In this document: piece by piece, positions 14,299 to 38,011 of the stretch
How positions within the stretch are numbered: the first letter of the stretch is position 1
Layout: each line of letters starts with the position of its first letter
Source: Pseudomonas sp. B6002
GTDB taxonomy: Bacteria > Pseudomonadota > Gammaproteobacteria > Pseudomonadales > Pseudomonadaceae
Length of the DNA: 38,074 nt
Direction of reading: 5' to 3'
NCBI RefSeq assembly: GCF_013385985.1
Contig: NZ_JACAOY010000042.1
Span: 1 to 38,074, forward strand
Program-made: the position numbers and the translations under genes
The notes under the pieces: model-generated
What the model saw: the letters and a program-made list of their open reading frames with translations, nothing else
Told to the model about the DNA's origin: nothing
Databases searched by the model: none

Positions 14299-14359
14299 GG
14301 TGCATTCCTGGCAGTAAAAGCGCGTGCTCAATAGTGCATGAACTTCTCTAGACCATTTA

Positions 14360-18228: not shown

Positions 18229-18232
18229 TGCC

Positions 18233-19789
18233 ATGACCTTACTGCTGAGCCGCCGAGACTTTCTCGGCTACAGCGCAACCGTCGGCGGCGGCCTGCTGCT
18301 GGCCGGTTGCGGCCCGAGTGACGCGCCCACCGCCATCGCCGGCAGCGACCAGCCGCGCTATGGCGGGCGTCTGCGCCTGGGCATTCTCGACGGCAACCAG
18401 AGCGGCAACCTGGATGCGCACAAGCCAGTGGGCAGCGGTATCGTTCGCGGCTTTGCGCTGTACAGCAAGCTGTGGGAATGGGACGAGCAGATGCAACCGC
18501 GCCTGGCCCTGGCCGAATTCGCCGAGCCGAATGCCGACGCCAGTGCCTGGACCTTGCGCTTGCGTCCGGGCCTGGAGTTCCACAACGGCAAGACCATCGA
18601 CGCCGACGACCTGATCTTCTCGATTCGCCGCCTCACCGACCCACAACTGGCCTCGCCGTATGCCGCGCTGTTGCACTGGGTCGACCGCGACAACCTGGTG
18701 AAGCTCGACAACCGCACCGTGCGCCTGGGCTTTCGCGAGGGGCGCAGCTACATGCCGCTGGCGGAAACCTGGGTCAACTTTGGCGGCATCGTGCCGGTGG
18801 ATTACCACCCGGTCACCAACCCGGTGGGCGCCGGCCCCTACAAGCTCAAGAGTTTCACCCCGGGACAGCGCTCGCTGTTCACGCGCTTTGAGAACTACTA
18901 CAAGGACGGCAAGCCCTACGCCGATGAGCTGGAAATCATCGACTTCAAGGACCAGGTCGCCCGCCTCGCCGCCTTGCGCGCCGGGCAGATCGACATGGCC
19001 AATGTGATGCCCACCGAGCAACTGCCGATCCTGCAAAAGGACCCGCGCCTTCAGGTGATCAAGTCGGTGACCGGCAATTGGCTGTCCTTCGACATGAACC
19101 TGGACAAGCCGCCGTTCAACGACCCACGGGTACGTGAGGCGTTTCGCCTGCTGGCCGACCGCGAAGAGCTGGTACGCCGCGCCCTCAACGGCCAGGGCCG
19201 GGTGGCCAACGACTTGTATGCGCCCAGCGACCCGACGTTCAACCACAGCCTCGGCCCGCGCCCCCATGACCCGCAACGCGCCGCGCAATTGCTCAAGGAA
19301 GCCGGCCAGGAAAACCTCGAAGTCGAGTTGGTCACCACGCCGGGGCCGGGCTTGAGTTCGGCGCTGGTTTTGGCTGAGCAGGCCAAGCGCATCGGCGTGA
19401 CCCTCAAGGTCAAGCAAGTGGACCTCGCCACCTTCCAGGGCCCGCTGAAGAACGACTGGACCCTGAGTACCGGCGGCAGCATTGGCGCGCCGTTTTTGGC
19501 CAGCGCGATTCATACCGATGCGCCGTTTGCGGTGTCGAACAAGACCCACTTCAACGACCCGCAGTTCAGCGAGCTGTTCCTCGCCGCCATGGCCCAACCC
19601 GACCTGGAGAAACGCAAGGCCCTGGTGCATCAGGTGCAGCAGATCCAGTACGAGCGCGGCGGCATGCTGATCTGGGGCTACGCCGACCTGCTCGACAGCG
19701 TGTCCACACGCGTCGGCGGCGCCAGTGCCGAGGAGTCGCTGTTCAGCACCTGGCGCTTCGAAAAGCTCTGGCTCAAAGACACCGCCTGA
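18233..19789 (+). CDS. Tat-exported lipoprotein, family 5 ABC substrate-binding protein (1)
   Basis: 518 residues from ATG 18233, GGAG nine bases upstream. The N-terminus carries a twin-arginine signal (SRRDFLGYS) followed by a lipobox LLLAGC, so it is a lipoprotein exported folded. The body is an SBP_bac_5 (DppA/OppA) fold: NLDAHKPVGSGIVRGFALYSKLWEW, DLIFSIRRLTDP, NPVGAGPYKLKSFTPGQRSLFTRFENYYK. It is closely similar to the protein at 28012-29568, which has exactly the same length. Unlike that one, no DppBCDF genes follow here, so it may share the transporter encoded at 24383-28019. Ligand unknown; the setting suggests a sulfur compound. Confidence 0.9.
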   Translation: MTLLLSRRDFLGYSATVGGGLLLAGCGPSDAPTAIAGSDQPRYGGRLRLGILDGNQSGNLDAHKPVGSGIVRGFALYSKLWEWDEQMQPRLALAEFAEPNADASAWTLRLRPGLEFHNGKTIDADDLIFSIRRLTDPQLASPYAALLHWVDRDNLVKLDNRTVRLGFREGRSYMPLAETWVNFGGIVPVDYHPVTNPVGAGPYKLKSFTPGQRSLFTRFENYYKDGKPYADELEIIDFKDQVARLAALRAGQIDMANVMPTEQLPILQKDPRLQVIKSVTGNWLSFDMNLDKPPFNDPRVREAFRLLADREELVRRALNGQGRVANDLYAPSDPTFNHSLGPRPHDPQRAAQLLKEAGQENLEVELVTTPGPGLSSALVLAEQAKRIGVTLKVKQVDLATFQGPLKNDWTLSTGGSIGAPFLASAIHTDAPFAVSNKTHFNDPQFSELFLAAMAQPDLEKRKALVHQVQQIQYERGGMLIWGYADLLDSVSTRVGGASAEESLFSTWRFEKLWLKDTA

Positions 19790-22509: not shown

Positions 22510-23595
22510 ATGTCCATTGAATTTGTCGGCATGATCTTCCCCCGCCAATGGTCCGAGACCCGTGGCGTTCGCAGCCCGGACTTCGACCTCGACTTCATCC
22601 GCCACCACGCCCGCGCCCACGAGCACGCCGGCTTCGACCGCGTGCTCATTGCCAGCGGCCCCGGCAGCGCCGACAGCCTGCAGATCGCCACCTACGCGGC
22701 CGCGCACACCGAGCGCCTGGGGTTCATGATCGCCCACCGCCCGGGGCTCACCGCGCCGACCGTGGCCGCCCGCGCCTTCGCCACCCTGGACCACACCACC
22801 GGCGGCGGGCGCATTCGCTTGCACGCCATCACCGGCATCACCGCCGAACCCCAGGAAGGCGATTTCCTGCTGGACAAGACCGAACGCTACCAGCGCACCG
22901 ACGAATACCTGGAGATCGTGCGCCGCACCTGGACCGCCGAGGAACCGTTTGATTTCGAGGGCAAGTACTTCAACATCAAGGGCGCGTTTTCACCGGTCAA
23001 GCCGCTGCACCAGCCGCATATCCCGATCTCGTTTGGCGGGTCTTCCGACATTGCCTACCAGATCGCGGTCAAGCATGCGGATTTGTATGCGCTGTGGGGC
23101 GAGCCGTTGAGTGGCGTGGCGGAGCAGATTGCCAAGCTCAAGGCCGCCGCGGCGTCGGCCGGGGTTGGCGCGCCACGGGTGAGTTTGTCGGTACGCTTGA
23201 TTTTGGGCGCGACCGAAGAACTGGCCTGGCAGCGTGCGGAGCAGATCCTCGCGCAGATCAAAGCCAACCCGCAGTTTGCGGCGGGCAGCCCGTGGAGCAA
23301 ACGCATCAAGGGCACCGGCTCGGAACGCTTGCTGGCAGCGGCAGCCTTGGGTGACCGCCATGACCGCGCGTTGTGGATGCCAACCGCCACGGCCGTGGGC
23401 GCGTATGGCGATACCACGGCGCTGGTGGGCACACCTGAAACAGTGGCGCAGGCGTTGTTGGATTACGTCGATTTGGGCGTGACCACGTTTTTGAATCGAG
23501 GCTATGACCCGTTGTACGACACCGTGGATTATGGGCGGTGGATCATTCCGGCGGTGCGGGAAGAGGCACGGCGCAGGAAGGCAAGCGTTGCGTAA
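22510..23595 (+). CDS. Luciferase-like monooxygenase, SsuD family (2)
   Basis: 361 residues, AGGAG before ATG 22510. SsuD-like order: EHAGFDRVLIASGPGSADSLQIATYAAAHTERLGFMIAHRPGLTAPTVAARAFATLDHTTGGGRIRLHAITG, then KTERYQRTDEYLEIVRRTW, HIPISFGGSSDIAYQIAVKHADLYALWGEPL. The SsuD active-site pieces are changed: no Cys54 equivalent, VSLSVRLILGAT instead of the RLH motif, and NRGYDPLYD instead of GYPHLEEA. It follows the TonB receptor by 19 bp and is probably co-transcribed with it. The last third shifts to G/T-ending codons. Substrate likely differs from simple alkanesulfonates. Confidence 0.9.
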   Translation: MSIEFVGMIFPRQWSETRGVRSPDFDLDFIRHHARAHEHAGFDRVLIASGPGSADSLQIATYAAAHTERLGFMIAHRPGLTAPTVAARAFATLDHTTGGGRIRLHAITGITAEPQEGDFLLDKTERYQRTDEYLEIVRRTWTAEEPFDFEGKYFNIKGAFSPVKPLHQPHIPISFGGSSDIAYQIAVKHADLYALWGEPLSGVAEQIAKLKAAAASAGVGAPRVSLSVRLILGATEELAWQRAEQILAQIKANPQFAAGSPWSKRIKGTGSERLLAAAALGDRHDRALWMPTATAVGAYGDTTALVGTPETVAQALLDYVDLGVTTFLNRGYDPLYDTVDYGRWIIPAVREEARRRKASVA

Positions 23596-24382: not shown

Positions 24383-26158
24383 TCACCCCAACGACGGCGA
24401 ATGCTCCAGCAACGTGCGCGTATACGCTGCCTGCGGCCGGTCCAGCACCTCATCCACTGCGCCCTGCTCCACCACCCTGCCCGCCTTGAGCACCAGCACC
24501 CGGTCGGCAATCGCACGGACCACGCCGAGGTCGTGGGTGACGAACAGCAAGGTCAGCCCTTCGCGCTGCAATTGGCGCAGCAGATCGAGGATCGAGGCTT
24601 GCACCGACACATCCAGTGCCGAGGTGATTTCATCGCAGATCAGCAGCTTCGGTTCGCACAGCAGCGCACGGGCGATGGCCACGCGTTGGCGCTCGCCGCC
24701 CGACAAACTTCCGGGGTACAGGTCGGCGACCGAGGCCGGCAGCGACACCCGCGTCAGCACCGCTTCGACCCGTTGCCGCGCCGCTGCCCCCTTCACGCAG
24801 AAGAAGTGTTCCAGGGGCGCACTCAGCGTCTGGTACACCGTCTGCCGTGGGTTCAACGCCCGGTACGGGTTCTGGAAGATGTACTGGATCGGGTGCCGCT
24901 GCCCCGCCTCACGCCGGCGTGCCTGCAAAGGTAACGCCTGCCCCGCGTAACTCAATGCGCCGGTGGCGTTCTCCCCAAGGCCGGCAATGGCCCGGGCCAG
25001 ACTGGTCTTGCCTGAGCCCGACTCGCCCACCAGCGCCAGGCATTCGCCCGGCTGCACTTGCACGTTGATGTCGAACAGCACTTGGCGGTCGTAAGCGACA
25101 TTCAACGCGCTGACCGTCAGCAACGAAGCTTGGGTATGCGCCGTGACGCTTGCAATCGGTGTCAGTGCGACCGCCTGCAACGGTCGCTCATGGGGCGTCC
25201 AACAGGCCACGGCATGGGCGATGTCCACCGGCAAGGTGGGCTCCGCCCGCGAACACGCCTCGGTAAACCGCTCGCAGCGCGGCCCGAAGCTGCACCCCTG
25301 AGGCCGCTGCCCCGGTGCCGGCGCATGCCCGGCAATCGCCTGCAATTCACGCCGGCCCGCCACGTCCGGGATCGCCGCCAGCAACCCTCGGGTGTACGGG
25401 TGGGACGGCCGGCTGAACAGCGCCTCCCGCGTCGCCGTTTCGACGATGCGCCCCGCGTACATCACCATCACCCGGTCCACCAGGTCCTTGATCACCGCCA
25501 GGTCATGGGACACATACACCGCCGCCACCCCCTGGCGCTTGCACAGGCGGCGCAGGGTGTCGAGGATGTGCGCCTGGGTGGTGACGTCGAGGGCGGTGGT
25601 TGGCTCATCCAGTACGATCAGGCGTGGACGCAGCACAAAGGCCAGCGCCAGCATCACACGCTGTTGCTGGCCACCAGACAGCTGGTGGGGAAAACGCCGC
25701 AAGAACTCCGGCTCATCCGGCAAGCCGACATCGCGCAACGTCTGCGTGATACGCAGCTGTTGCGCCTCGCGGTCCAACCCCGAGGGGTGCACCGCCAAGG
25801 TCTCGCGCAACAGGTGACCGATGCGCAGCGCCGGGTTCAGGGCCGTGGCCGGGTCCTGGGCGACATAGCCGATCAGGCCACCTCGGGCGCGGCGCAGGGC
25901 TTCACCGTCAAGGCTCAACAGTGCTTGGCCGCCCACCTGCACCTGGCCGCCGACAATCTGCGCACCGCGCCGCGCATGGGCCAACAATGCGGTGGCCAGG
26001 GTGGTCTTGCCCGAGCCGGACTCACCCACCAGCCCGAGGATCTCCCCCGCTTGCAGGCTGAACGAGATGCCCGACACCACGTCCACCTCGCCGGCCAATT
26101 CAACCCGCAGGTCACGCACCTGCAACACCGCGCTGTCGATTTCGGTCATGGCATTCAT
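24383..26158 (-). CDS. Dual-domain ABC ATPase (DppD-DppF fusion type)
   Basis: 591 residues with two complete nucleotide-binding domains in one chain. Domain 1: GLVGESGSGKTTL, LSGGQQQRVMLALA, LIVLDEPTTALDV, YVSHDLAVI. Domain 2: ALVGESGSGKTSL, LSGGERQRVAIARA, LLICDEITSALDV, FVTHDLGVV. Between them is the oligopeptide-type C-terminal region with four cysteines (CSFGPRCERFTEACSR...VAC), where some relatives are reported to bind an iron-sulfur cluster. It overlaps the upstream permease gene by 4 bp (ATGA) and energises the importer with the two permeases and the Tat-lipoprotein SBP. GsiA is a fused relative. Transport of peptide-like or conjugated sulfur compounds is inferred from context. Confidence 0.93.
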   Translation of the reverse strand: MNAMTEIDSAVLQVRDLRVELAGEVDVVSGISFSLQAGEILGLVGESGSGKTTLATALLAHARRGAQIVGGQVQVGGQALLSLDGEALRRARGGLIGYVAQDPATALNPALRIGHLLRETLAVHPSGLDREAQQLRITQTLRDVGLPDEPEFLRRFPHQLSGGQQQRVMLALAFVLRPRLIVLDEPTTALDVTTQAHILDTLRRLCKRQGVAAVYVSHDLAVIKDLVDRVMVMYAGRIVETATREALFSRPSHPYTRGLLAAIPDVAGRRELQAIAGHAPAPGQRPQGCSFGPRCERFTEACSRAEPTLPVDIAHAVACWTPHERPLQAVALTPIASVTAHTQASLLTVSALNVAYDRQVLFDINVQVQPGECLALVGESGSGKTSLARAIAGLGENATGALSYAGQALPLQARRREAGQRHPIQYIFQNPYRALNPRQTVYQTLSAPLEHFFCVKGAAARQRVEAVLTRVSLPASVADLYPGSLSGGERQRVAIARALLCEPKLLICDEITSALDVSVQASILDLLRQLQREGLTLLFVTHDLGVVRAIADRVLVLKAGRVVEQGAVDEVLDRPQAAYTRTLLEHSPSLG

Positions 26159-26964
26159 GGCTGTTTAGCTCCCGTCCCTGCGCTGCTGCGGCCGATGCCT
26201 TCGGCGAGGATATTGGTGCCGTAGGCAAACACACCGATCAGCACCGCCGGGGCCAGCACCGCCCAGGGTTGTACCAGCAGGCCCGCCTGGTTTTCGTTGA
26301 TCATCAAGCCCCAATCCGCCGTCGGTGGTGCCACGCCGTAGCCGAGAAAACTCAGGCCCGAAAGCATGCCCACGCCCCACGTCAGCAGGTTGCCGAAGTG
26401 CACCAGCAACGGCGTGAGGATGTTCGGCAGAATCTCCTTGAACAGGATGCGCCGACGTGAATACCCCATCATCTGCGCCGCTTCGACAAACTCCTGCCCC
26501 GCCACCGCCACCGCGCTGGCCCGTGCCAGGCGGATCACGCCGGGGATGAACGCAATCGACACCGTCAACACGATCAGCCACGGCGCGCGCCCGAGCATCG
26601 AGACGATCAGCAACACCAAAATCAGGTCGGGAAACGCCAGGGACACGTCCGCCGACCAGGTGATCCACTGGTCCAGCCGCCGCCGCGACAAGCCGGCGAG
26701 CAAACCGAGGGTGGTGCCCACCGCCAGCGCCAGGCTCGCCGCCGCCACCGACATCCACAGCACCGATACGCCACCGCTGAGCAACCGCGACAGCACGTCG
26801 TGTCCCAAAAAGTCATACCCCAGCCACGCCGCGCCCGTGGGGGCGCCGTACACCGGGCCGACCATGTCAGTCGGCCCGTGGGGCGCGAGCCAGGGGCCGA
26901 GCACTGCCACGGCCACCACCAGCAGCGTGATCAACAGGCCCTTGCGGGTTTGCGACTCGTTCAT
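26155..26964 (-). CDS. ABC permease, DppC type
   Basis: 269 residues with an N-terminal membrane helix (LLITLLVVAVAVLGPWLA), a short periplasmic loop with GTDxxGRDxLSRLL-like YDFLGHDVLSRLLSGG, and the BPD_transp_1 region. The coupling loop EFVEAAQMMGYSRRRILFKEILPNILTPLLVH is the standard EAA motif. It ends LSGLSFLGYGVAPPTADWGLMI, the typical DppC tail. It overlaps its neighbours by 4 bp on both sides. It pairs with the DppB-type permease to form the channel. Confidence 0.93.
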   Translation of the reverse strand: MNESQTRKGLLITLLVVAVAVLGPWLAPHGPTDMVGPVYGAPTGAAWLGYDFLGHDVLSRLLSGGVSVLWMSVAAASLALAVGTTLGLLAGLSRRRLDQWITWSADVSLAFPDLILVLLIVSMLGRAPWLIVLTVSIAFIPGVIRLARASAVAVAGQEFVEAAQMMGYSRRRILFKEILPNILTPLLVHFGNLLTWGVGMLSGLSFLGYGVAPPTADWGLMINENQAGLLVQPWAVLAPAVLIGVFAYGTNILAEGIGRSSAGTGAKQP

Positions 26965-28019
26965 GCGTCACCTCGGGAACGGCGCCACCACGGCGTGATG
27001 CCACGGCGGTTGCGTTGGATCAGGTTCACCCGTCGCGCCGTGCGCAGCTTGGGTGTCAGCAGCACGGTCAACAGGTCGGCCAGCAGGTTGATCAGCACCA
27101 CGGCCAAGGTGATCACCAGCACAATCGCCTGCACCATCGGCAGGTCGCGCATCTGGATCGCGGCGTTGAGCGCGGTGCCAATGCCGGGGTAGCTGAAGAT
27201 CACTTCGGCCAGCACCGCGCCGCCAATCAGCGTACGCAAGGTCAATGCGACGCCCTGAATGGCCGGCACCAGCGCATTGGGCAAGGTGTGGCGCCACACG
27301 ATGCGCCGCTCCGGCACCCCGCGCAGCCGGGCGGCAATCACATAGTCGGACGCCAGCGCCTCGATCATGGCGGCGCGCACCATACGGGTCAGGTACGGCA
27401 AGGCGGTGAGGCTCAGGGCCAACACCGGCAGTACCAGAAACCTGAGTTGACGCAGCAGCGACTGGTCCGGGTCGAGGATCGACACAGCCGGCAAAAAATC
27501 CATATGGGGCATGGAGAACAGCAGCACCAGACCGATCGCCAGCAGAAACCCCGGCGTGGCCTTGAGAAAGATCAGCAGCGACAGGCCCCAGCGATCCAGC
27601 CGGCTGTCGCGCCGCAACGCCAACGCCACGCCCAGCGCCAATGCAGTGGGCACCACCACGGCGATGACGCCCGCCAGCAACACCAGGGTGTAGCCAAACC
27701 GGCCCCACAGCAGGTGACTGACCGGCACGTTGGAATCCAGCGACACCCCCAGATCGCCGCGCAAGGCCGCCCCTAGCCAGCGCAGGTATTGCCAGGCAAT
27801 CGGCTGGTCGAGCCCGAGTTGGTGTTGCAGCGTGAGGATGCTGTCGAGCGGCGCGTCCGGGCCGAGGATCACCCGCGCCGGGTCCGACGGCAGCGCCTGG
27901 GTGGCGATAAACACCACCAGGCTGATCACCCAGGCGGTCAGCAGGCCGTAGCCCAGGCGCCCGACAAACCAGGACAGCCACGCAGGTGTGCGTGGGGTGT
28001 TGCAGCGCGGCTCAGACAT
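26961..28019 (-). CDS. ABC permease, DppB type
   Basis: 352 residues. The first helix GYGLLTAWVISLVVFIATQALPSDPARVILGPDA and the QHQLGLDQPIAWQYLRWLGAALRGDLGVSL segment are hallmarks of the DppB family, as is EALASDYVIAARLRGVPERRIVWRHTLPNALVPAIQ (EAA loop). About six membrane spans. The ATG overlaps the end of the SBP gene by 8 bp and its stop overlaps the next start by 4 bp. It is longer than many DppB proteins because of a ~15-residue basic tail after the last helix. Confidence 0.93.
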   Translation of the reverse strand: MSEPRCNTPRTPAWLSWFVGRLGYGLLTAWVISLVVFIATQALPSDPARVILGPDAPLDSILTLQHQLGLDQPIAWQYLRWLGAALRGDLGVSLDSNVPVSHLLWGRFGYTLVLLAGVIAVVVPTALALGVALALRRDSRLDRWGLSLLIFLKATPGFLLAIGLVLLFSMPHMDFLPAVSILDPDQSLLRQLRFLVLPVLALSLTALPYLTRMVRAAMIEALASDYVIAARLRGVPERRIVWRHTLPNALVPAIQGVALTLRTLIGGAVLAEVIFSYPGIGTALNAAIQMRDLPMVQAIVLVITLAVVLINLLADLLTVLLTPKLRTARRVNLIQRNRRGITPWWRRSRGDA

Positions 28020-29571: not shown

Positions 29572-30759
29572 TCAAGCCTCTTCGCGCTGCACGACCGTGT
29601 GGGTGACGCCCAGGCGTGGCACGTCAAAACCGTGGTCCAGGTCGAGCAGCGGGAACAACAGGTCGGCCACACGGTGGGCTTCGTCGATCAGCGGGAAGCC
29701 CGACAAGATGAACGCCGACGTGCCCTGGGCCTCGTATTCACGAATACGCTCGGCCACTTGCTCGGCGCTGCCCACCAGGTAGGTACCGGCTGCCGGGCCG
29801 AGGATATTGAAGCCAAACAGGCTGGGCCCGAGCCACACGTTGGGGTAGATCTCCAGCTCGCGTGCGGTTGGCAAGCGCCCGCTGCGAATAGTGTCGACGT
29901 TGCGCTGGGTTTGCGGGTCGTCGCTGTGGAAATCATCGAAGCTCACACCGGGCGGCAGCTGGCGTTCGATGGCGTTGCGCGCAGTCTGCAACGAGGTGCG
30001 CTGCAGCAGTTTTTCGGCGTGGGCCCAGGCTTCTTCCTCGGTCTCGCGCACGATGATCTGCAGGCGGGTGCCGAAGGTCAGCTCGCGGCCAATCTTCGCG
30101 GCCTCGGCGGCCACCTTGCGGAACTTGTCGCCCAGCTTTGGCGGGGTATTGGCGAAGCTCAGGTACACGTCCAGCAACTGCACCGAATGCTCGACACCTG
30201 GCCCCGACGTGCCCGCGCCCCACAGCGGGATACCGGGCTTCTGGTACGGCGGGTGCCAGCCGCCCAAGGGATGGTTGGCCGCACCCGGCGAACGGGGGGC
30301 GAGCTTGACGTAGTCGCCGTCATAGCCACGGGTATCGCCGGCATAGAAGCCCTGGAACGCCCGCCAGTATTCGAGGCTGAAGGCGTAGCGTTCGTCATGG
30401 GGGTAATGCACGCCCAGTGTCGCCAGGCCCGCGTCATTGCCGTTGACCACGTTGAACAACAGGCGGCCGTTGGAGAACTGGTCGAAGGTCAGCGCCCATT
30501 TGGCCAAGACAGCTGGCGACAGCTCCCCCGGGTGTTGGGCCACCAAAAAGCGCAGGCGTTGGGTGGCGTCGATCAACGAAGCGGCCACGGCCAGGCTTTC
30601 ATTCGGGCTGGAGCCGAGCAAAGAGCCGTAGTAACCCAGGCGATCACTGGCGACGGCCAGTTGCTTGAGGTGGTGGAAATCGGTTTTCCAACGGCCTTCG
30701 GGCTCCCACGGATAAGGGCCGTCGGGCGTGGTGAGGTACCAGAGAATTTTTACGGCCAT
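29572..30759 (-). CDS. Luciferase-like FMNH2-dependent monooxygenase, SsuD family (3)
   Basis: 395 residues from ATG 30759 (AAGGAT upstream). The longer frame to 30879 is an artefact of reading through a REP doublet. It is the most SsuD-like of the three: FNVVNGNDAGLATLGVHYPHDERYAFSLEYWRAF, FGTRLQIIVRETEEEAWAHAEKLL, ELEIYPNVWLGPSLFG, GTYLVGSAEQVAERIREYEAQGTSAFILSGFPLIDEAHRVADLLFPLL. Compared with E. coli SsuD, Arg226 is kept but His228 is Gln, and Tyr331/His333 are Phe/Leu. It ends one base before the SBP gene region and is separated from the upstream aldolase gene by a REP doublet. Confidence 0.9.
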   Translation of the reverse strand: MAVKILWYLTTPDGPYPWEPEGRWKTDFHHLKQLAVASDRLGYYGSLLGSSPNESLAVAASLIDATQRLRFLVAQHPGELSPAVLAKWALTFDQFSNGRLLFNVVNGNDAGLATLGVHYPHDERYAFSLEYWRAFQGFYAGDTRGYDGDYVKLAPRSPGAANHPLGGWHPPYQKPGIPLWGAGTSGPGVEHSVQLLDVYLSFANTPPKLGDKFRKVAAEAAKIGRELTFGTRLQIIVRETEEEAWAHAEKLLQRTSLQTARNAIERQLPPGVSFDDFHSDDPQTQRNVDTIRSGRLPTARELEIYPNVWLGPSLFGFNILGPAAGTYLVGSAEQVAERIREYEAQGTSAFILSGFPLIDEAHRVADLLFPLLDLDHGFDVPRLGVTHTVVQREEA

Positions 30760-30790: not shown

Positions 30791-30880
30791 TGTAGGAGCC
30801 GGCTTGCCGGCGATGGCGGCGGCACATCCGACATTGATGTCGCCTGGTACACCGCTATCGCAGGCAAGCCAGCTCCCACA
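30791..30880. repeat. Chimeric REP doublet
   Basis: The left arm at 30791-30814 is the GTAGGAGCCGG-CTTGCCGGCGAT form. The right arm at 30857-30880 is the inverted GTGGGAGCTGG-CTTGCCTGCGAT form. The loop resembles that of the doublet at 34297-34388. It interrupts the minus-strand sulfur operon between the aldolase and monooxygenase genes. Confidence 0.9.
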
Positions 30881-30897: not shown

Positions 30898-31629
30898 TTA
30901 GCTACGACGGTCAATCGCCGGCACCAGGCCCAACGCCGTGGCCTGCTCAAACAACCCGCTCATCTTCCATTGCTGGGTCAACACACCCGGACCATAGGCG
31001 CGCGAGCCGCCCAGTGCGTCGGCGAGCAATTGCAGCTGTGCACCCTCCTCCAGCAACAGGATGAATTCCGCCGTGGCGCGCAGCCCTTGCTTGCCCCATA
31101 CCGTGGAGCCGCCGTTGGCTTCGAGGATGGCCAGGTTGAAGGGGTTTTCGGCGATCTTGTCGAGGATGAAGTCCACCTCTTGCTGGCGGCGGTCGATGTA
31201 CACCGGCAGTTCACGCGCCAGCTGGTAGCGCTGCACCGGCACGTAATGAAATGGCAGGGTGCGGTGGGTCTGGGCCCAGGCGCCCAGGTACGGCGAATGC
31301 ACGTGGGACACGGTGGTCACGTCCGGGTGCTGCTGGAACAACTTGGTGTAGCGCCCCAGGCCGCCCTTGCCCTTGCCGAAGATCACGTTGCCGGCAAAGT
31401 CGGTGACGGTGGCCTGCAGCGGCTTGCGGTAGTTCCACGGGCCGCCGTAGTTCACCGACACCAGCAGCTCCTGGCCGGGGACGCGCTCGATAAAGCCAAC
31501 GGTGCCGTTGGCGGTGATGGTGTCTGTTTCGCGGAACACGGTGAAGGCTTCTTCAGCTTCCAGCAGGACCTTGTCGATAAAGGCCTGCAATTCCTGGCTG
31601 ATGGGTTGTGCGTGGACGATGGCAGTCAT
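30898..31629 (-). CDS. Class II aldolase/adducin family protein
   Basis: 243 residues, ATG 31629 preceded by GGAG. The zinc-binding HxH motif is in VSHVHSPYLGAWAQTH, followed by LPVYIDRRQQEVDFILDKIAENPFNLAILEANGGSTVWGKQGLRATAEFILLLEEGAQLQLLADA, the typical end of the family where a further metal His is usually present. Members cleave or rearrange phosphosugars and other hydroxy-carbonyl compounds, or decarboxylate. Placed 15 bp after the DszB-like gene, it may process the carbon skeleton left by desulfination. A class II aldolase-like protein in a desulfurisation operon is uncommon; the reaction is unknown. Confidence 0.87.
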   Translation of the reverse strand: MTAIVHAQPISQELQAFIDKVLLEAEEAFTVFRETDTITANGTVGFIERVPGQELLVSVNYGGPWNYRKPLQATVTDFAGNVIFGKGKGGLGRYTKLFQQHPDVTTVSHVHSPYLGAWAQTHRTLPFHYVPVQRYQLARELPVYIDRRQQEVDFILDKIAENPFNLAILEANGGSTVWGKQGLRATAEFILLLEEGAQLQLLADALGGSRAYGPGVLTQQWKMSGLFEQATALGLVPAIDRRS

Positions 31630-31644: not shown

Positions 31645-32688
31645 TCAGGCGCGGCGCTTGGCCAACAGTTCATGGGCAGCTTGCAGGGGGCGCGGGTCGG
31701 CCCAGTCGGCGATGGCAAAATCGCGCTCCAGGAAGCCGTGCAGGTAAAGGAAAGTCTTCTGGGTGTCGAGGAACGCCAGACGCTGGGCCGACAGGTCCGG
31801 TGCCAGGGTGGTGTGGAAGTCGCCGCGATAAGCCTCGGCCACACCGGCACTGCCCGCGCGGGTTTCTTCTTCAAGAATCGCGTTGAGGCTGTCGCGGTTG
31901 TTCGCGGCCCACTCGGCGGCACTGAGGGTTTGTGCGAGGAAGCGCACCACCAGGTCAAAGTGGTTGTCCAGCAGGCTCTGGTGGACGGTGATCGGACGCG
32001 GCGTGCCGTTGTTGATGCGATAACGCGGCTCGGCGATAAGGTCCAGATCGAGGCCCACCACCAGGCCCAACCGGCGCGCCGCGTCAGCGGCCGAAGCGCC
32101 CTTGACGTACACCGCGTCCACCTCACCGCGCACCAGGTAATCCAGGCCCGACCACAGGCGCTGCAAACCGCGTTGCGGGTCGGGTGCCTGTTCCTGATCC
32201 TGCAACGCCACTTCCACCAGCGTCACGTCATCAAAGCCCAGGCCGGCCAGGCTCAGGGCGCCCTTGTATCCGTGCAGGCTCATGGCCCGGGCAATGCTGC
32301 CCGGCCGGCTCTCGCCCCACGCTGGCAGGGCCAGGCGCTTGCCTTTCAAGTCCTCGGGGCGGGTGATGCCGGAGTCCGGGCGCACGAGGATGGTCTGCCA
32401 TTCTTCGATCCAGGTCAGGCCGATCAGCCGGCTCGGCGCACCGGCCGCACGCGCAGCCAACGCCGGCACATTCCCGCCTTCGCGAAACAGCCCTGGCAGG
32501 TCGTGATCGTAGTGATGGCGACCCAACTGGCGGGCCTCCTGCAAGGTGGACACCGGCAGGCCATCGGGGGCGAACTCTTCAGTCAGCCAGCCCAGTTTGT
32601 AGGCGATGCCGGACGCGGTCGGCACCGGACAACGGGTAAACCAGATCTGCTCAAGCTCAGGCGTGGGCAGGACAGCGGAAAGGGTCAT
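31645..32688 (-). CDS. DszB-like desulfinase (periplasmic-binding-protein fold)
   Basis: 347 residues from ATG 32688 (GGAG seven bases upstream), no signal peptide, so cytoplasmic. It lines up along its length with DszB, the 2'-hydroxybiphenyl-2-sulfinate desulfinase of Rhodococcus. The catalytic Cys27 motif CPVP is here Cys20 in RCPVPTA. His60 and Arg70 correspond to His59 and Arg69 (HYDHDLPGLFREGGNVP), with the same spacing of ten. Further matches are RLIGLT, LVRPDSGITRPEDLKGKRLALP and LDTQKTFLYLHGFLERDFAIADWADP. It probably releases sulfite from a sulfinate made by a monooxygenase of the cluster. A transporter binding protein is unlikely given the missing signal peptide and kept triad. Confidence 0.8.
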   Translation of the reverse strand: MTLSAVLPTPELEQIWFTRCPVPTASGIAYKLGWLTEEFAPDGLPVSTLQEARQLGRHHYDHDLPGLFREGGNVPALAARAAGAPSRLIGLTWIEEWQTILVRPDSGITRPEDLKGKRLALPAWGESRPGSIARAMSLHGYKGALSLAGLGFDDVTLVEVALQDQEQAPDPQRGLQRLWSGLDYLVRGEVDAVYVKGASAADAARRLGLVVGLDLDLIAEPRYRINNGTPRPITVHQSLLDNHFDLVVRFLAQTLSAAEWAANNRDSLNAILEEETRAGSAGVAEAYRGDFHTTLAPDLSAQRLAFLDTQKTFLYLHGFLERDFAIADWADPRPLQAAHELLAKRRA

Positions 32689-32730: not shown

Positions 32731-32746
32731 TGCAGAGGCCGTGCCA
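32731..32746 (-). promoter_or_regulatory. Sigma54 (-24/-12) promoter for minus-strand sulfur operon
   Basis: On the minus strand TGGCACGGCCTCTGCA, matching the sigma54 consensus TGGCACG-N4-TTGCA with one change. Predicted start is near 32720, a leader of about 32 nt before the DszB-like ATG at 32688. Confidence 0.72.
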
Positions 32747-32797
32747 AACGGCCAAAACCCCGGTTTACGGGGCTGATGCGCCGTGCTACGCAACGCG

Positions 32798-32907: not shown

Positions 32908-32923
32908 TGGCGTGGAACTTGCT
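32908..32923 (+). promoter_or_regulatory. Sigma54 (-24/-12) promoter for SfnB-like gene
   Basis: TGGCGTGGAACTTGCT has GG-N10-GC and a full TTGCT -12 element. Start is expected near 32935, giving a ~118-nt leader that contains the REP doublet at 32952-33018 before the ATG at 33053. Confidence 0.6.
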
Positions 32924-33052: not shown

Positions 33053-34285
33053 ATGACTACGTTTGAACAGGCCCCCATACGCCAACTGCACAGCGAAGCC
33101 GAGGCCATCGCCGCCGCCCATGAAATCGCCGTGGAGATCGCTGCCATTGCCGCCGACCACAGGCAAAACGGCCAACTGCCGTGGCGCCAGGCGCAGCTGC
33201 TTTCCGAAAGCGGCATCACAGCCATCGGCGTGCCAGAGGCCTTCGGCGGGCTCGGCGCGTCGGTGCAAACCATCGTCGAGACCGTGCGCATCATCTCGGT
33301 GGCCGATGGCGGCGTGGGGCAATTGCTGCAGATTCACAACGTGATGCTACGTGGCATCTTCAACGGCTACCCCGACGCCGTGCGTGATCGCCTGGTCAGC
33401 GACGTGCTGGCCGGCAAACGCTTCGGCAATGCCCTGGCCGAGGTCGGCGGCAAGAACAAATTCGCGCTCAAGACCCGCGTCGAACGCCGTGACGATGGCG
33501 CCCTGGTGCTCAACGGCAGCAAGTTCTACTCCACCGGTTCCTACCTGGCCGAATGGATCTCCCTCACCGCCGCCTCGGAAGATGGTGGCGCGGGCGTGCT
33601 GCTCAACCGCAATGCGCCAGGCCTGACCCTGGTGGATGACTGGGAGGCGTTCGGCCAGAAGAACTCGGTGAGCGGCACGGTGAATTTCGACAACATCGTG
33701 CTCGATGAAGACTACGTGTCACGGCGCAAAGGCCCGATGAAACGCACCGGGCTGACCTTCCCGCAGATCCTTCACGCGGCCATCGACACCGGCATTGCTG
33801 CCGGCGCCCTGTCGGCCGCCGTGGATTACCTCAAGCACAACGCACGACCGTGGGTGGAAAGCGGCGTCGATCACGCCAATGAAGAGCCGCACATCATCAA
33901 GCAGATCGGCGAATACGCCGTGGCCCTGCGCGCCGCCGAGTCGCTGTTGCGCGATGCGGCACGGGTGTTTGATGCCCATGAGCTGGACCCGGAGAACAAG
34001 CAACTGCAAGACGAACTGATCCTTTCAGTTGCCACCGCCCGCGCCCACTCCGACAGCGCTTCGCTGAAGATCTCCAGCGACATCTTCTCGCTGCTCGGCG
34101 CCAGCGCGTCCCTGAGCAAATGGAACCTCGACCGCTTCTGGCGCAACGCCCGGGTGCACACCACCCACGACCCGATCCGCTGGCGCTTGCACCACGTGGG
34201 CAACTACTACCTCAACGACGTGGACCCGGGCGAATACACCGCGATCCTCAACGCCAAGGAAACCCAGGGCGCCACCCAAAAATAA
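33053..34285 (+). CDS. SfnB/DszC-like flavin monooxygenase (acyl-CoA dehydrogenase fold)
   Basis: 410 residues, AAGGA before ATG 33053. Acyl-CoA dehydrogenase fold of the SfnB sulfur-acquisition family: SEAEAIAAAHEIAVEIAAIAADH, LPWRQAQLLSESGITAIGVPEAFGGLG, RFGNALAEVGGKNKF, LVLNGSKFYSTGSYLAEW, LTLVDDWEAFGQKNSVSGTVNFDNI, LLHAAIDTG-like ILHAAIDTG, and RPWVESGVDHANEEPHIIKQIGEYAVAL. The C-terminal FWRNARVHTTHDPIRW keeps the two His that match DszC His388 and His391. DszC oxidises sulfides to sulfones with FMNH2 and O2, so this enzyme could provide sulfoxide or sulfone substrates for the luciferase-like enzymes. It diverges from the DszB-like operon and shares its regulatory region. Confidence 0.9.
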   Translation: MTTFEQAPIRQLHSEAEAIAAAHEIAVEIAAIAADHRQNGQLPWRQAQLLSESGITAIGVPEAFGGLGASVQTIVETVRIISVADGGVGQLLQIHNVMLRGIFNGYPDAVRDRLVSDVLAGKRFGNALAEVGGKNKFALKTRVERRDDGALVLNGSKFYSTGSYLAEWISLTAASEDGGAGVLLNRNAPGLTLVDDWEAFGQKNSVSGTVNFDNIVLDEDYVSRRKGPMKRTGLTFPQILHAAIDTGIAAGALSAAVDYLKHNARPWVESGVDHANEEPHIIKQIGEYAVALRAAESLLRDAARVFDAHELDPENKQLQDELILSVATARAHSDSASLKISSDIFSLLGASASLSKWNLDRFWRNARVHTTHDPIRWRLHHVGNYYLNDVDPGEYTAILNAKETQGATQK

Positions 34286-34296
34286 CCACACGCCCC

Positions 34297-34388
34297 TGTA
34301 GGAGCCCGGCTTGCCGGCGATGGCGTCGGCACATCCACTACAGATGTCGCCTTGTACACCGCCATCGCCGGCAAGCCGGGCTCCTACA
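34297..34388. repeat. REP doublet, GTAGGAGCCCGG subtype
   Basis: Forward copy 34297-34321 and inverted copy 34364-34388. Its loop (GGCACATCC...GATGTCGCC...GTACACCGC) is homologous to that of the chimeric doublet at 30791. It lies between the SfnB-like gene and the exporter. Confidence 0.92.
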
Positions 34389-34425
34389 ACGGGCGAGTGA
34401 ATTCCTTTTTGCCGATGAGCTTTTC

Positions 34426-36192
34426 ATGATCGAAAGACACCCTCTTCTGCGCAGCCTGGCAATCTACCGGGAAATGCCCTGGCGGTTCAGCCTGGTGGCA
34501 GCGCTGTACATCGCCATCAACCTGGGGCTGGTCTGGCAGCAATGGCTGATAGGCCACGCCGTCAACGACGTCAGCGCCGGCCGTGCCGTAGTGCATCACG
34601 CCGACGGCAGCCTCGACGCCAGCCTGGGTTGGTACTGGCTGGGCCTGATGCTGGCCGTGGCCCTGGGCCGTGGCGTGCTGCAATACGTCGCCAGCGTGCT
34701 GTCGCTGGTGATCAGCCAGGAACTGCTGACACGCCTGCGCGAACGCATCCTGGCCCAGGTGCAAAGCCTGCACCTGGGCTACCACTGGCAGCACGGCATG
34801 GGCGAGATGATCACCCGCACCACCCGGGACGCCGACAAGGTGCGCGACGCGCTGATCACCTTCTGGCGGCAGTTGGTCGAAACGCCGCTGGTGGTACTGG
34901 CCACCGTGGGCTTGCTGAGTTGGTATGACCCACTGCTGGGCTTGGTGCCGCTGCTGCTGACGGTCACGGGCCTGGGCATTTTTGTGCTGCAAACCGAGCG
35001 GCTGGTCGGACTCGACCGTGCCGTCGGCAGCGCTTACGACCGCGTCAATCAGGACCTGAGCGAGGGCATTGGCGGCGTGCGGGTGATCAAATCATTCGCG
35101 CTGGAGCAACCGCGTATCCAGGGTTTTGCCGACCAAGTGGCGGTGTTTGCCACGTTGGCGCGGCAGGCCCTGGCCTATTCCAGTTCACGCATCCCGCTGC
35201 CCCAGGCGGTGGTCGCGCTGGGGCACGTGTGGATCCTGGTGTACGGCGCGCATCTCGTTGCGGCCGGTCAGTTGGGGATTGGTGAGTTGGTCACCTCCCT
35301 GCTGATCGCCACCACGCTGGTATTCCGCATCGAAGGTATCGGCCGGGTGATGCAGACGTTCGCCGACGCCCGCGCCAGTGCCGAGCGCATCTGGCAATTG
35401 CTGGATGCACCGGCCGCGATCCGCAGCGGCACTGCCGCCCTGCCCGCCAGTCCCTTGGGGCTCAAGCTGGACGCGGTGAGTGTCACCGCGCCTGGCGGTG
35501 GCCGCGACATTCTGCAGGGCTGTTCGCTGACCTTGCAGCCCGGTGAGGTCGTCGCATTGGTCGGCGCCACGGGCACTGGCAAGAGCCTGCTGGCCAGCCT
35601 GTTACCCCGCTTGAGCGATGTGACGGCCGGGCGCGTATTGCTGGGCTCGGACCGTCAGGGCTGGCAGGACATCCGCGCGCTACAACTGGGCCCATTGCGC
35701 CAACGGGTGCACGTCGTACCGCAGGAGAGCTTCCTGTTCGCCGGCACCCTCGCCGCCAACCTGCGCCTGACGGCACCCGACGCCAGCGACGAACAACTGC
35801 GCGAAGCCCTGCACCTGGCCGCCGCCGAAGACGTGTTGCAACGCCTGCCCCACGGCCTGGAAACACCCCTGGGCGATCGCGGCGTCACCCTGTCCGGCGG
35901 CCAGCGCCAACGCCTGTGTCTGGCCCGCGCGTTGCTGGGCAAACCGGACATCCTGTGCCTGGACGACGCCACCAGCGCCCTCGACGCCATCAGCGAACGC
36001 CAGGTGCTGCACAACCTGCGGCAGCTGCACGGCACGACGGTGCTGGTGATCTCCAGCAAGCTCTCGACCATCCTGCTGGCCGACCGCGTGCTGATGCTCG
36101 ACGCCGGCCACATCGTCGCCCAGGGCACCCACACCCACCTGCAATCCACCGACGCGGCTTACCGCGACCTGCTGGGGATCGACCATGGCTAA
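34426..36192 (+). CDS. ABC exporter half-transporter with degenerate ATPase site (subunit 1)
   Basis: 588 residues from ATG 34426. Six-helix membrane domain (start FSLVAALYIAINLGLVW) fused to an ATPase domain: Walker A GATGTGKSLL, signature LSGGQRQRLCLARAL. The Walker B catalytic Glu is Asp514 (ILCLDDATSALD) and the switch His is Ser544 (VLVISSKLSTI), so this subunit's own nucleotide site should hydrolyse poorly. Its LSGGQ is intact. The next gene overlaps by 8 bp and has the complementary defects, marking the pair as a heterodimeric exporter of the TM287/288 or BmrCD type. Substrate unknown; lipid or drug export is typical. Confidence 0.92.
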   Translation: MIERHPLLRSLAIYREMPWRFSLVAALYIAINLGLVWQQWLIGHAVNDVSAGRAVVHHADGSLDASLGWYWLGLMLAVALGRGVLQYVASVLSLVISQELLTRLRERILAQVQSLHLGYHWQHGMGEMITRTTRDADKVRDALITFWRQLVETPLVVLATVGLLSWYDPLLGLVPLLLTVTGLGIFVLQTERLVGLDRAVGSAYDRVNQDLSEGIGGVRVIKSFALEQPRIQGFADQVAVFATLARQALAYSSSRIPLPQAVVALGHVWILVYGAHLVAAGQLGIGELVTSLLIATTLVFRIEGIGRVMQTFADARASAERIWQLLDAPAAIRSGTAALPASPLGLKLDAVSVTAPGGGRDILQGCSLTLQPGEVVALVGATGTGKSLLASLLPRLSDVTAGRVLLGSDRQGWQDIRALQLGPLRQRVHVVPQESFLFAGTLAANLRLTAPDASDEQLREALHLAAAEDVLQRLPHGLETPLGDRGVTLSGGQRQRLCLARALLGKPDILCLDDATSALDAISERQVLHNLRQLHGTTVLVISSKLSTILLADRVLMLDAGHIVAQGTHTHLQSTDAAYRDLLGIDHG

Positions 36193-38011
36193 CCCGCTGC
36201 CAGGCAAAGCCTTGAGCGACATCGAAATCGAAGAAATGCTGGCGAAAAAAGCCCTCGACCGGGGCATGTTCAAGCGCTTGCTGCCACTGCTGCGACCGAT
36301 CCGCCGTCAGATCCTGATGGTGATCGGCATCGAGATCCTGCTGGTGTTCACCGTGTTCCTGCGCCCGTGGTTCGTGCGCGAACTGCTTGATCGCGGGTTG
36401 GTGCAGAGCACCGATCATTGGCTGCTGGATGAGCGCCTGGTGTTGTGGCTGGGCCTGGGCCTGGCGGCGAGCTGGCTGGCGCGCTTTCTGTTGGCCGGGG
36501 TCTCGCAGTTCGTCGCCGGCAGCGCGGCGATCCGGGTGCTGAACGCCTTGCGTGTGCAGGTGTTCGCCCATGTGCAGGGCTTGAGCGTGAGCTACTTCGA
36601 CCAGACCCGTGCCGGGCGCATCATTTCCCGGGTCGACCGCGACGTGGACGCCCTTGAGCCGCTGGTGATCCAGGGCCCACCGGAATTACTCGGCGCCGTG
36701 CTGCGTTGCGGCCTTGCGTCGGTGATGCTCTGGCGCATCGACCCACGCTTCTTTCTGAGCCTGGTGGCGACGGTGCCGCTGCTGGTGATCGCCACGTGGA
36801 GCTTCAAGCGCATCTCCCAGCGCAACTGGGCCAAGGTCGCGGAAAACCGCAGCCGGTTTACCGCGCACCTGGTGGAAAGCGTCAGCGGCGCACGCCTGTT
36901 GCAACAGTGCGCCCAGGAAACGCCCAACCTGCAGCGTTATCGCGGGTTGCTGGATGACTTCAACCACGCGTTGATTCGCGGCAGCTTGCGCTCGTCGTGG
37001 TTTGCGCCGTTTACCGCCCTGCTCAGCTCGGCCGGCATTGCACTGTTGTTGCTGGTGGGCGCGTACGGCCTGGCGGCGGGCGACGTGAGTGTGGGCCAGG
37101 TGGCTGAAAGCCTGTTCTACGTGTTTCTGTTCTTGGGGCCGCTGCAGGAACTGTCGGACCTGTTCGAGCGTTACGCCACCGGGTCGGCATCAGCGCAACG
37201 AATCTTCCTGCTGCTCGATACCCGCCCGCAGATCGTCGACAGCCTCACCCCTGAACCGCTGCCGCTGGCACGCGGTGACGTGCAGTTTGACCAGGTGGGA
37301 TTCAGCTACGGGCAGACGCCGGTCCTCACCGGGCTGAACCTGCACATTACGGCGGGTGAAGTGCTGGCGATTGTCGGCCCGTCCGGCCATGGCAAGAGCA
37401 CGCTGGTGCAGTTGCTGACGCGTTTCTACGAAGCCCAGACCGGCGCGGTGCGGCTCGACGGCATTGACGTGCGTGACCTGGCGCAACACACCCTGCGCCG
37501 GCATGTGGGGGTGGTGTTGCAGGACAACGTGTTGTTCAGCGGCAGCATTCTCGACAACCTGCGCCTGGCCGCGCCCCAGGCGTCTGAAGCAGCGTTGATT
37601 GCGGCGGCCCGTGAGCTGGGGGCGGATGAGGTGTTGGAGCGGCTGCCCCACCAGTACCACACCGAAGTGGGGCCGTTGGGGGCGCATTTGAGCCATGGGC
37701 AGCGGCAGTTGGTGTGCCTGGTGCGCGCGTACCTGGCGGACCCCGCGGTGCTGGTGCTGGATGAGGCGACGTCGGCGGTGGATATTCATACGGAGCGGCG
37801 GATTCAGCGGGCGTTGCGAAGGCTGTGTGAGGGGCGCACGGCGATCATCATTGCGCATCGGCTGGCGACGATTCGGGATGCGGATCGGATTGCGGTGGTG
37901 CGGCATGGGCAGGTGGTGGAAGTGGGGGGGCATGGGGAGTTGATGGAGAGGGATGGGGTGTATGCGGGGTTGTATCGGAGTTATTTGTTGAGTGCGGAGG
38001 TGGTCGCGTGA
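36185..38011 (+). CDS. ABC exporter half-transporter with catalytic site (subunit 2)
   Basis: 608 residues, ATG 36185 overlapping the previous gene by 8 bp. An N-terminal ~30-residue helix precedes the six-helix domain (QILMVIGIEILLVFTVFLRPWFV). ATPase: Walker A GPSGHGKSTL, Walker B VLVLDEATSAVD with the catalytic Glu, switch His in IIIAHRLATI. The signature is altered to LSHGQ (His504 for Gly). In a heterodimer the degenerate signature here would face the degenerate Walker B of subunit 1, leaving one working site formed by this Walker A/B and the partner's LSGGQ. Codons in the last ~300 bases shift strongly to G/T endings. Confidence 0.93.
   Translation: MANPLPGKALSDIEIEEMLAKKALDRGMFKRLLPLLRPIRRQILMVIGIEILLVFTVFLRPWFVRELLDRGLVQSTDHWLLDERLVLWLGLGLAASWLARFLLAGVSQFVAGSAAIRVLNALRVQVFAHVQGLSVSYFDQTRAGRIISRVDRDVDALEPLVIQGPPELLGAVLRCGLASVMLWRIDPRFFLSLVATVPLLVIATWSFKRISQRNWAKVAENRSRFTAHLVESVSGARLLQQCAQETPNLQRYRGLLDDFNHALIRGSLRSSWFAPFTALLSSAGIALLLLVGAYGLAAGDVSVGQVAESLFYVFLFLGPLQELSDLFERYATGSASAQRIFLLLDTRPQIVDSLTPEPLPLARGDVQFDQVGFSYGQTPVLTGLNLHITAGEVLAIVGPSGHGKSTLVQLLTRFYEAQTGAVRLDGIDVRDLAQHTLRRHVGVVLQDNVLFSGSILDNLRLAAPQASEAALIAAARELGADEVLERLPHQYHTEVGPLGAHLSHGQRQLVCLVRAYLADPAVLVLDEATSAVDIHTERRIQRALRRLCEGRTAIIIAHRLATIRDADRIAVVRHGQVVEVGGHGELMERDGVYAGLYRSYLLSAEVVA

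What the first reader, a model, noticed from the sequence alone, without database searches (positions are those of the whole stretch)
31645..32688. DszB-like desulfinase with intact catalytic triad in a Pseudomonas-type organosulfur operon
The sequence lines up with Rhodococcus DszB from CPVP to the C-terminus and keeps Cys, His and Arg equivalent to Cys27, His60 and Arg70 (here Cys20, His59, Arg69). It has no signal peptide, so it is not a transporter binding protein despite the fold. With a DszC-like enzyme divergent at 33053 and SsuD/DszA-like enzymes downstream, the window encodes a full Dsz-like logic (C, A, B steps) but with a class II aldolase and Tat-lipoprotein importer added. I know of no characterised pathway with this set.
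Basis: partly seen in the sequence, partly recalled or inferred. Interest (0 to 1): 0.75.

Follow-up and report, generated by a model that had tools for sequence, protein, structure and literature searches.

The report
DszB-sister desulfinase in sulfur-starvation cluster
The gene most likely encodes a cytoplasmic enzyme that strips sulfite from an unknown sulfur compound; it is a distant sister of the fuel-desulfurising enzyme DszB, often annotated as a transport protein, and sits in a cluster that looks switched on by sulfur starvation.

Summary
The minus-strand gene 31645-32688 (347 aa) aligns with DszB nearly end to end, with Cys20/His59/Arg69 at Cys27/His60/Arg70; Thr18 (Ser25) and Gly71-Gly72 (Gly72-Gly73) also match. 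DszB is its nearest solved relative (profile 118.9 bits against 26.1 for SsuA; first Foldseek hit). In a tree it groups with DszB away from binding proteins, but as a sister family (25% identity). The triad is intact in 147 of 183 distinct relatives. Glu96, Arg224, Pro230 and Arg231, lacking in DszB, are invariant (195 of 195 rows), so the substrate is probably not hydroxybiphenyl sulfinate. Sigma-54-type elements precede the gene in 58 of 90 relatives (background 30 of 720). It shares operons with a class II aldolase-fold protein, luciferase-type monooxygenases and importers. The "full Dsz logic" is only partly supported: SfnB1 is DszC-like, but the adjacent monooxygenase is SsuD-like and the "aldolase" lacks the third metal histidine. 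New: the genome holds two tandem paralogues, one with Cys changed to Ser in 24 of 24 distinct Pseudomonas-type copies, yet closely conserved; their operon also has a sigma-54-type element (25 of 26). Activity, substrate and active-site distances remain untested.

The parts
31645..32688 (-). DszB-sister protein (called DszB1 here), 347 aa: Cys20, His59, Arg69, Thr18, Gly71-Gly72; family-specific Glu96, Arg224, Pro230, Arg231
32731..32746 (-). -24/-12 (sigma-54 type) element TGGCACGGCCTCTGCA, GG-N10-GC, about 43 nt before the DszB1 ATG
   Evidence: score >=10 upstream of 58 of 90 DszB1-type genes against 30 of 720 random windows
32908..32923 (+). divergent -24/-12-like element TGGCGTGGAACTTGCT before SfnB1
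   Evidence: score >=10 before 30 of 35 SfnB1-type genes
30898..31629 (-). class II aldolase-fold protein (AldII), 15 nt downstream of DszB1; HxH kept, third metal His replaced (invariant N172-G173-G174)
29572..30759 (-). LLM3, SsuD/MsuD-like flavin-dependent monooxygenase (ATG at 30759; the searches used 30762)
   Evidence: SsuD model 270.1 bits, cutoff 518.2; weak local match to DszA; start codon
28012..29571 (-). oligopeptide-type (SBP_bac_5) binding protein with a twin-arginine and lipobox N-terminus by inspection
26961..28019 (-). OppB-type permease
26155..26964 (-). OppC-type permease
24383..26158 (-). fused OppD-OppF-type ATPase
33053..34285 (+). SfnB1, SfnB/DszC-like group D flavin monooxygenase, divergent from DszB1
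   Evidence: SfnB model 392.7 bits, cutoff 430.9; 33% to DszC
34426..36192 (+). ABC half-transporter 1 (exporter type); 34426 is my choice among in-frame starts (ORF opens at 34120; searches used 34357)
   Evidence: an exporter half-transporter lies in 45 of 80 relative loci
36185..38011 (+). ABC half-transporter 2
13222..14331 (-). sigma-54 activator with AAA+ domain; no receiver domain reported; candidate regulator
   Evidence: homologue in 27 of 80 relative loci
17023..18228 (+). LLM1, a second SsuD-type monooxygenase of the wider cluster
22510..23595 (+). LLM2, a third SsuD-type monooxygenase
18182..19789 (+). second SBP_bac_5 binding protein of the wider cluster
19929..22490 (+). TonB-dependent receptor of the wider cluster

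Best explanation
DszB1 is a cytoplasmic C-S bond-cleaving enzyme of the DszB chemistry (a desulfinase). It binds an organic sulfinate with Arg69 and the Gly71-Gly72 loop. Cys20, tuned by His59 and Thr18, gives its proton to the sulfur-bearing carbon, and SO2/sulfite leaves for cysteine synthesis. The sulfinate would be made by the co-encoded flavin monooxygenases (SfnB1 to sulfoxide or sulfone; an LLM enzyme to cleave the sulfone) from a compound brought in by the TonB receptor and the Opp-type importer. The cluster is switched on by sigma-54 with an SfnR-like activator when sulfate is scarce. The invariant Glu96, Arg224, Pro230 and Arg231, absent from DszB, point to a substrate more polar than hydroxybiphenyl sulfinate; by the DszB mechanism it should carry sulfur on an aromatic or otherwise unsaturated carbon. 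Shown here: homology, active-site register, fold, sister position, synteny, conserved promoter-like elements. Inferred: the reaction, the order of steps, the regulator, the response to sulfate, the substrate class.
For: DszB is the best solved relative by profile and the first by Foldseek E-value. The residues named for DszB catalysis in the passages I saw (C27, H60, S25, R70, G73) are conserved or conservatively replaced (passages of PMC6100217 and PMC12168087). The triad is intact in 147 of 183 distinct relatives, and in 89 of 90 DszB1-type copies, the other being cut off by the end of its locus. The reciprocal search with DszB in the plasmid collection returns an annotated desulfinase first and then places of this family. 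Sigma-54-type elements precede the gene in gamma-, beta- and alphaproteobacteria, and the paralogue operon in 25 of 26. Flavin monooxygenases lie in 71 of 80 loci and AldII in 70 of 80. An MsuE-type flavin reductase above its cutoff is in the genome.
Against: No activity is known for any member in what I read. Distances between Cys20, His59 and Arg69 were not measured. TM-scores to SsuA are about as high as to DszB. The adjacent LLM3 is SsuD-like, and an SsuD-type enzyme could release sulfite from a sulfonate without any desulfinase. SfnB1 is in only 7 of 43 loci outside Pseudomonas. DszB residues G99/W225/S253 become E96/K196/R231. 32 of 90 DszB1 upstream regions do not reach the sigma-54 score. 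Thi5 and MqnD also appear in the fold search, so the fold alone does not give the reaction.
Confidence: 0.6

Rival explanations
1. Same fold and same Cys/His/Arg site but another reaction: for example decarboxylation or another protonation-driven bond cleavage of an aromatic or enolic intermediate in an organosulfur pathway. Sulfite release would then be done by the SsuD-like monooxygenases.
For: Other enzymes of this binding-protein fold (Thi5, MqnD) are in the Foldseek list, and 4,5-dihydroxyphthalate decarboxylase appears weakly by sequence (E 0.74). Residues differ from DszB at E96, K196, R224, R231. SsuD-type enzymes lie nearby.
Against: The DszB residue set including the Ser25/Thr18 position is kept, and DszB is far closer by sequence profile than the other fold members.
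Confidence: 0.2
2. A cytoplasmic ligand-binding protein or sensor without catalysis, derived from a sulfonate-binding protein.
For: Binding-protein fold (SsuA E 4e-14, TM 0.74 by target). One paralogue type has Ser for Cys in 24 of 24 distinct copies and is still well conserved. Sphingomonad copies have His to Asp.
Against: DszB1 itself keeps Cys-His-Arg in 89 of 90 distinct copies.
Confidence: 0.13
3. A misplaced or secreted ABC transporter binding protein, as public records often call it.
For: Pfam NMT1 and a sub-cutoff SsuA-family match. Of the 13 listed plasmid places with an annotated gene (40 of 92 records listed), 12 are called ABC transporter substrate-binding protein and 1 monooxygenase.
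Against: No signal segment by inspection, SsuA-family score far below cutoff, the tree splits it from binding proteins at 100/99, and binding proteins with their own N-terminal leaders (by inspection) sit in the same cluster.
Confidence: 0.03

Closest known systems
[quoted passage not shown] PDB 2de2/2de3/2de4)
   Same: Fold, Cys/His/Arg and Gly-Gly active-site register, Ser25 position (Thr here), no evident signal peptide, company of a DszC-like and luciferase-type monooxygenases.
   Different: 25% identity, sister clade, four family-invariant residues (E96, R224, P230, R231) absent from DszB, no true DszA neighbour, AldII and Opp importer added, sigma-54-type promoter element.
bdsABC benzothiophene desulfurisation operon of Gordonia terrae C-6 (PMC3868597)
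   Same: A desulfinase-annotated gene with an FMNH2-dependent and an alkanesulfonate-annotated monooxygenase, and sulfonate-type transporter genes with neighbouring locus numbers, induced on an organosulfur source; low homology to the DBT 4S enzymes as stated there (passages read).
   Different: No AldII, Opp importer or sigma-54 promoter mentioned in the passages read; its BdsA sequence is not held here, so kinship with this family is untested.
sfn/msu dimethyl sulfone pathway of Pseudomonas and the DMS route of Acinetobacter baylyi ADP1 (PMC13352529; abstract and passages read)
   Same: MsuC/SfnB-type and SsuD/SfnG-type two-component monooxygenases, MsuE reductase; sigma-54 activator SfnR (in that paper's reference titles).
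   Different: In that route sulfinate is oxidised to sulfonate and cut by a monooxygenase; DszB and desulfinase are not found in its text.
SsuA/TauA sulfonate-binding proteins (TIGR01728)
   Same: Overall fold, organosulfur context.
   Different: Score below cutoff, no signal segment, active-site residues of DszB present.

Membership tests
DszB (EC 3.13.1.3) | Catalytic Cys27, His60, Arg70 and Gly73, with Ser25 hydrogen-bonded to His60 | tested here: met
   C20, H59, R69, G72, T18 in register; roles from PMC6100217 and PMC12168087 passages
DszB (EC 3.13.1.3) | Fold of DszB | tested here: met
   Foldseek ranks 1-3, TM 0.72-0.74, 24% identity; SsuA has like TM-scores at weaker E
DszB (EC 3.13.1.3) | Active-site residues close in space | tested here: inconclusive
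   Good model but no coordinates could be opened; pdb_via not available
DszB (EC 3.13.1.3) | Falls inside the DszB clade | tested here: not met
   Outside the clade of two DszB sequences (100/100); long branches warned of
DszB (EC 3.13.1.3) | DszB residues besides the triad at family-invariant or near-invariant positions | tested here: not met
   G99, W225, A252, S253 of DszB are E96, K196, P230, R231 here; that they line the pocket is not shown
DszB (EC 3.13.1.3) | dszABC operon | tested here: not met
   DszC-like gene divergent; adjacent LLM3 is SsuD-like, not DszA
DszB (EC 3.13.1.3) | Sulfite release from 2'-hydroxybiphenyl-2-sulfinate | not testable with these tools
   needs an assay
SsuA-type ABC binding protein (TIGR01728) | Score over the curated cutoff of 163.5 | tested here: not met
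   59.9 bits; the window's SBP at 8323 scores 261.8. That at 14701 scores 94.0, also under the cutoff
SsuA-type ABC binding protein (TIGR01728) | Export signal | tested here: not met
   By inspection only; ribosome site and promoter element place the start at 32688
Sigma-54 (SfnR-type) sulfur regulon | -24/-12 element before the operon, conserved | tested here: met
Sigma-54 (SfnR-type) sulfur regulon | Activation by SfnR on sulfate limitation | not testable with these tools
   needs expression data
Class II (zinc) aldolase, for AldII | Three metal His and catalytic Glu (recalled from FucA) | tested here: not met
   HxH invariant in 26 rows; third His aligns with Gly; the Glu position looks lost too, read from one alignment only

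The most novel reading that the evidence does not exclude
A 4S-like but distinct sulfur-scavenging route in soil bacteria, run by an unrecognised family of DszB-sister desulfinases on polar, probably aromatic or unsaturated sulfinates. The genome carries three family members, one of which (DszB3) has natural Ser for the catalytic Cys and works as a dedicated partner, carrier or new Ser enzyme. The AldII protein, stripped of the usual metal site, does a new step.
Probability: 0.3. Interest if true: 0.72.

Novelty: new variant of a known kind. Interest (0 to 1): 0.55.

Why it matters
[quoted passage not shown] A sister family found in Pseudomonas, Acinetobacter, Massilia, methylotrophs, sphingomonads and some actinomycetes, and often labelled as transporter proteins, would give new enzymes to test, would suggest which sulfur compounds soil bacteria use when sulfate is short, and offers a natural Cys-to-Ser version of an enzyme whose engineered C27S form was crystallised with substrate.

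Tried and rejected
Transporter binding protein: rejected. True DszB: rejected by tree, residues and operon. Canonical aldolase for the neighbour: rejected on the third metal His; structural neighbours include epimerase, aldolases, a pyridine dicarboxylate decarboxylase and non-haem iron enzymes, so no function is assigned. Upstream in-frame TTG at 32793 as start: rejected, because the -24/-12 element lies inside that stretch and a ribosome site precedes 32688. Whether Gordonia BdsA belongs to the family: approached through two searches of 396 actinobacterial genomes each, which both gave only the seed and one other genome; left open. Literature: ten searches of the open PMC library showed no characterised member in their listings or in the passages read; subscription papers and supplements were not seen, so absence from print is not shown. 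PMC12316311 (COG1104 cysteine sulfinate desulfinase) and PMC10179380 (a reference title) are irrelevant. PMC6362003 only says that a class II aldolase, DhbB, takes part in a decarboxylation: a lead for AldII, not evidence. PMC12581299 (P. aeruginosa sulfur starvation) does not mention the three PA25xx/PA26xx locus numbers I recalled as possible homologues; that was a guess from memory.

Loci fetched twice were merged only (183 distinct of 192 rows; the 195 are these 192 and the three own-genome copies); the 18 loci with both paralogues still hold one genome twice (L054/L128). L090 (titled Paucimonas MAG) was counted with Pseudomonas. In one search the 250 nt were taken before the tblastn match, not before a verified start. 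In one search LLM4 gave 1 of 22, but its start had been set 66 codons too early; with the likelier start it is 25 of 26.

Full report
What is there. The finding lies on the minus strand: a 347-aa ORF from ATG 32688 to 31645 with GGAG six bases before the ATG. It heads a run of seven genes in one direction: DszB1, AldII (15 nt on), LLM3, an SBP_bac_5 binding protein, OppB, OppC and a fused OppDF, ending at 24383. SfnB1 and two exporter-type ABC half-transporters run the other way from 33053 to 38011.

The DszB likeness. With one sequence, DszB is the first PDB match (E 5.9e-17). With a 48-row family profile it scores 118.9 bits against 26.1 for SsuA. The AlphaFold model (pLDDT 91.3, pTM 0.90) has three DszB chains as its first Foldseek matches, then SsuA and Thi5; by TM-score SsuA is about as near as DszB. 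In register, T18, C20, H59, R69, G71, G72, Q98, D191 and W260 stand where DszB has S25, C27, H60, R70, G72, G73, Q101, D220 and W282. In PMC6100217 (passages seen) Cys27 is the proton donor, stabilised by His60, whose charge is set by Ser25; PMC12168087 (passages seen) has His60 and Arg70 holding the sulfinate. Distances could not be measured.

Not DszB itself. In a maximum-likelihood tree of 56 rows the five binding proteins split from the rest at 100/99, the two DszB sequences form a clade at 100/100, and the window family is a separate clade (96/96 for its 48 rows); the program warns that long branches meet near the root. BLAST identity to a Mycobacterium DszB is 25%. Across 195 aligned rows (192 matches and the three own-genome copies) R69, G72, E96, Q98, D191, R224, P230 and R231 are invariant. 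E96, P230 and R231 face other residues in DszB, and R224 a gap. I read this as a different, more polar ligand; that these residues line the pocket was not shown. The search back with DszB found an annotated desulfinase (66%) and then, among the 30 of 81 records listed, places also found with DszB1, such as those of Sphingobium and Streptomyces. In 396 actinobacterial genomes DszB found only the two genomes that also matched the family profile.

Distribution. In genome samples it is patchy: 23 of 150 of the same genus and 7 of 398 of the same phylum, own genome included in both, and 2 of 396 in the phylum of an actinobacterial seed, seed included. Among 40 of 92 plasmid records listed, 13 have a gene annotated at the place: 12 are called ABC transporter substrate-binding protein and 1 monooxygenase.

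Gene company. In the 80 loci a luciferase-type monooxygenase is present in 71, AldII in 70, an exporter half-transporter in 45, SfnB in 41, Opp-type genes in 40, Ssu-type genes in 34, the sigma-54 activator in 27 and a TonB receptor in 21. In the 43 loci outside Pseudomonas AldII is in 36 and SfnB in only 7. AldII lies within 300 nt of DszB1 in 55 of 80 and 28 of 43. In the 10 Acinetobacter loci the order DszB1-AldII-LLM3-SBP-OppB-OppC-OppDF is kept at 52-68% identity, with LLM3 found in 9 and SfnB1 after it in 7. The three actinobacterial loci among the 80 carry DszB1 with Ssu-type transport genes and monooxygenases but no AldII.

Regulation. TGGCACGGCCTCTGCA at 32746-32731 has the GG-N10-GC spacing of a -24/-12 promoter. 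A score of 10 or more occurs before 58 of 90 DszB1-type genes, 5 of 40 DszB2, 0 of 14 DszB3 and in 30 of 720 random windows. By gene class it is high at SfnB1 (30 of 35) and DszB1 (58 of 90), intermediate at TonB3 (6 of 14), LLM1 (15 of 37), AldII (20 of 70) and SBPb (9 of 36), lower at OppDF (5 of 35) and atp1 (4 of 31), and 0 for LLM3 (of 38), OppB (40), OppC (40) and the exporters (41 and 38); background 47 of 1498. LLM4, which heads the DszB2-DszB3 operon, has it in 25 of 26 once its start is set right; the own copy has one at L034 11706-11691, before a start at 11637. The rows are related, so these are not independent events, but sites occur in Pseudomonas, Acinetobacter, sphingomonads, Massilia and Janthinobacterium. 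The window also encodes a sigma-54 activator for which no receiver domain was reported (13222-14331). The titles of the SfnR papers (Endoh 2003, 2005) in the reference list of PMC13352529 are the precedent; SfnR identity was not tested.

Paralogues. The own genome has a tandem pair on another contig (C25; 41% and 38% identity). In relatives such as L045 and L048 the pair lies beyond the exporter genes, with LLM4, so an assembly gap probably separates them here. DszB2 keeps Cys in 42 of 42 distinct copies; DszB3 has Ser in 24 of 24. Among 18 loci with both (one genome twice), DszB3 is closer than DszB2 to its own-genome copy in 14, equal in 3, less close in 1, so it seems under constraint. PMC6100217 says its mechanism agrees with the activity assays of the C27S mutant; that this mutant is inactive is recalled. 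Sphingomonad loci instead have His59 to Asp beside an intact copy.

The neighbour AldII has H109 and H111 invariant but Gly where FucA has its third metal His, and invariant R49, R134, R147, E170, N172 in 26 rows. Its model (pLDDT 89.0) is nearest to ribulose-phosphate epimerase, fuculose aldolase and a pyridine dicarboxylate decarboxylase, and non-haem iron enzymes (TqaM, POD, NovR) follow. No NCBIfam model reaches its cutoff in the window member.

Mechanism and rivals. I favour sulfite release from a sulfinate by Cys20 protonation (0.6). Rivals are another reaction on the same site (0.2), a non-catalytic binding protein (0.13) and a transporter protein (0.03). The DszB mechanism of proton attack on an aromatic carbon argues for an aryl or unsaturated sulfinate. 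The nearest described system I saw is bdsABC of Gordonia terrae C-6, where extracts with three genes including a desulfinase turned benzothiophene into o-hydroxystyrene (PMC3868597, passages); whether BdsA belongs here is open.

Noticed in passing
L034:8245-9300 and 9419-10465 (own genome contig C25): Tandem family paralogues next to LLM4, two TonB receptors and SsuBC-like genes; one has Ser for the catalytic Cys in 24 of 24 distinct Pseudomonas-type copies.
   Followed up: yes
window 30898-31629: Class II aldolase-fold protein with only two of three metal histidines and a conserved EANGG in the place of the third; an unassigned branch of the fold.
   Followed up: partly
sphingomonad loci, e.g. 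L110:5431, L127:6831, L035:12537: Family members with Cys kept but His59 changed to Asp, upstream of an intact copy.
   Followed up: partly
window 7742-7829, 14586-14667, 23611-23698, 24272-24359, 30792-30879: Five inverted pairs of the REP-like sequence GTAGGAGCCGGCTTGCCGGCGA (10 matches with up to 3 mismatches, mean 0.00 expected); one lies between AldII and LLM3.
   Followed up: partly
window 23798-24256: 152-aa IS200-like transposase (Pfam Y1_Tnp, 41 bits) between two REP pairs, as expected of a REP-associated transposase.
   Followed up: partly
window 4367-7714: 1115-aa protein with repeated LADYKSLGPPDE..GPG.IRYETQDG segments and a hydrophobic region near its C-terminus; no Pfam match at 0.01.
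   Followed up: no
window 8283-8298 and 14544-14559: Further -24/-12-like elements before two SsuA-type binding protein genes, suggesting one regulon over the window.
   Followed up: partly
L140:6835-13059 (Rhizobium sp. ACO-34A plasmid): Five consecutive genes called hypothetical; the last is a DszB-like protein that branches below the family, has Cys/His/Arg and Glu96 but not Arg231.
   Followed up: no
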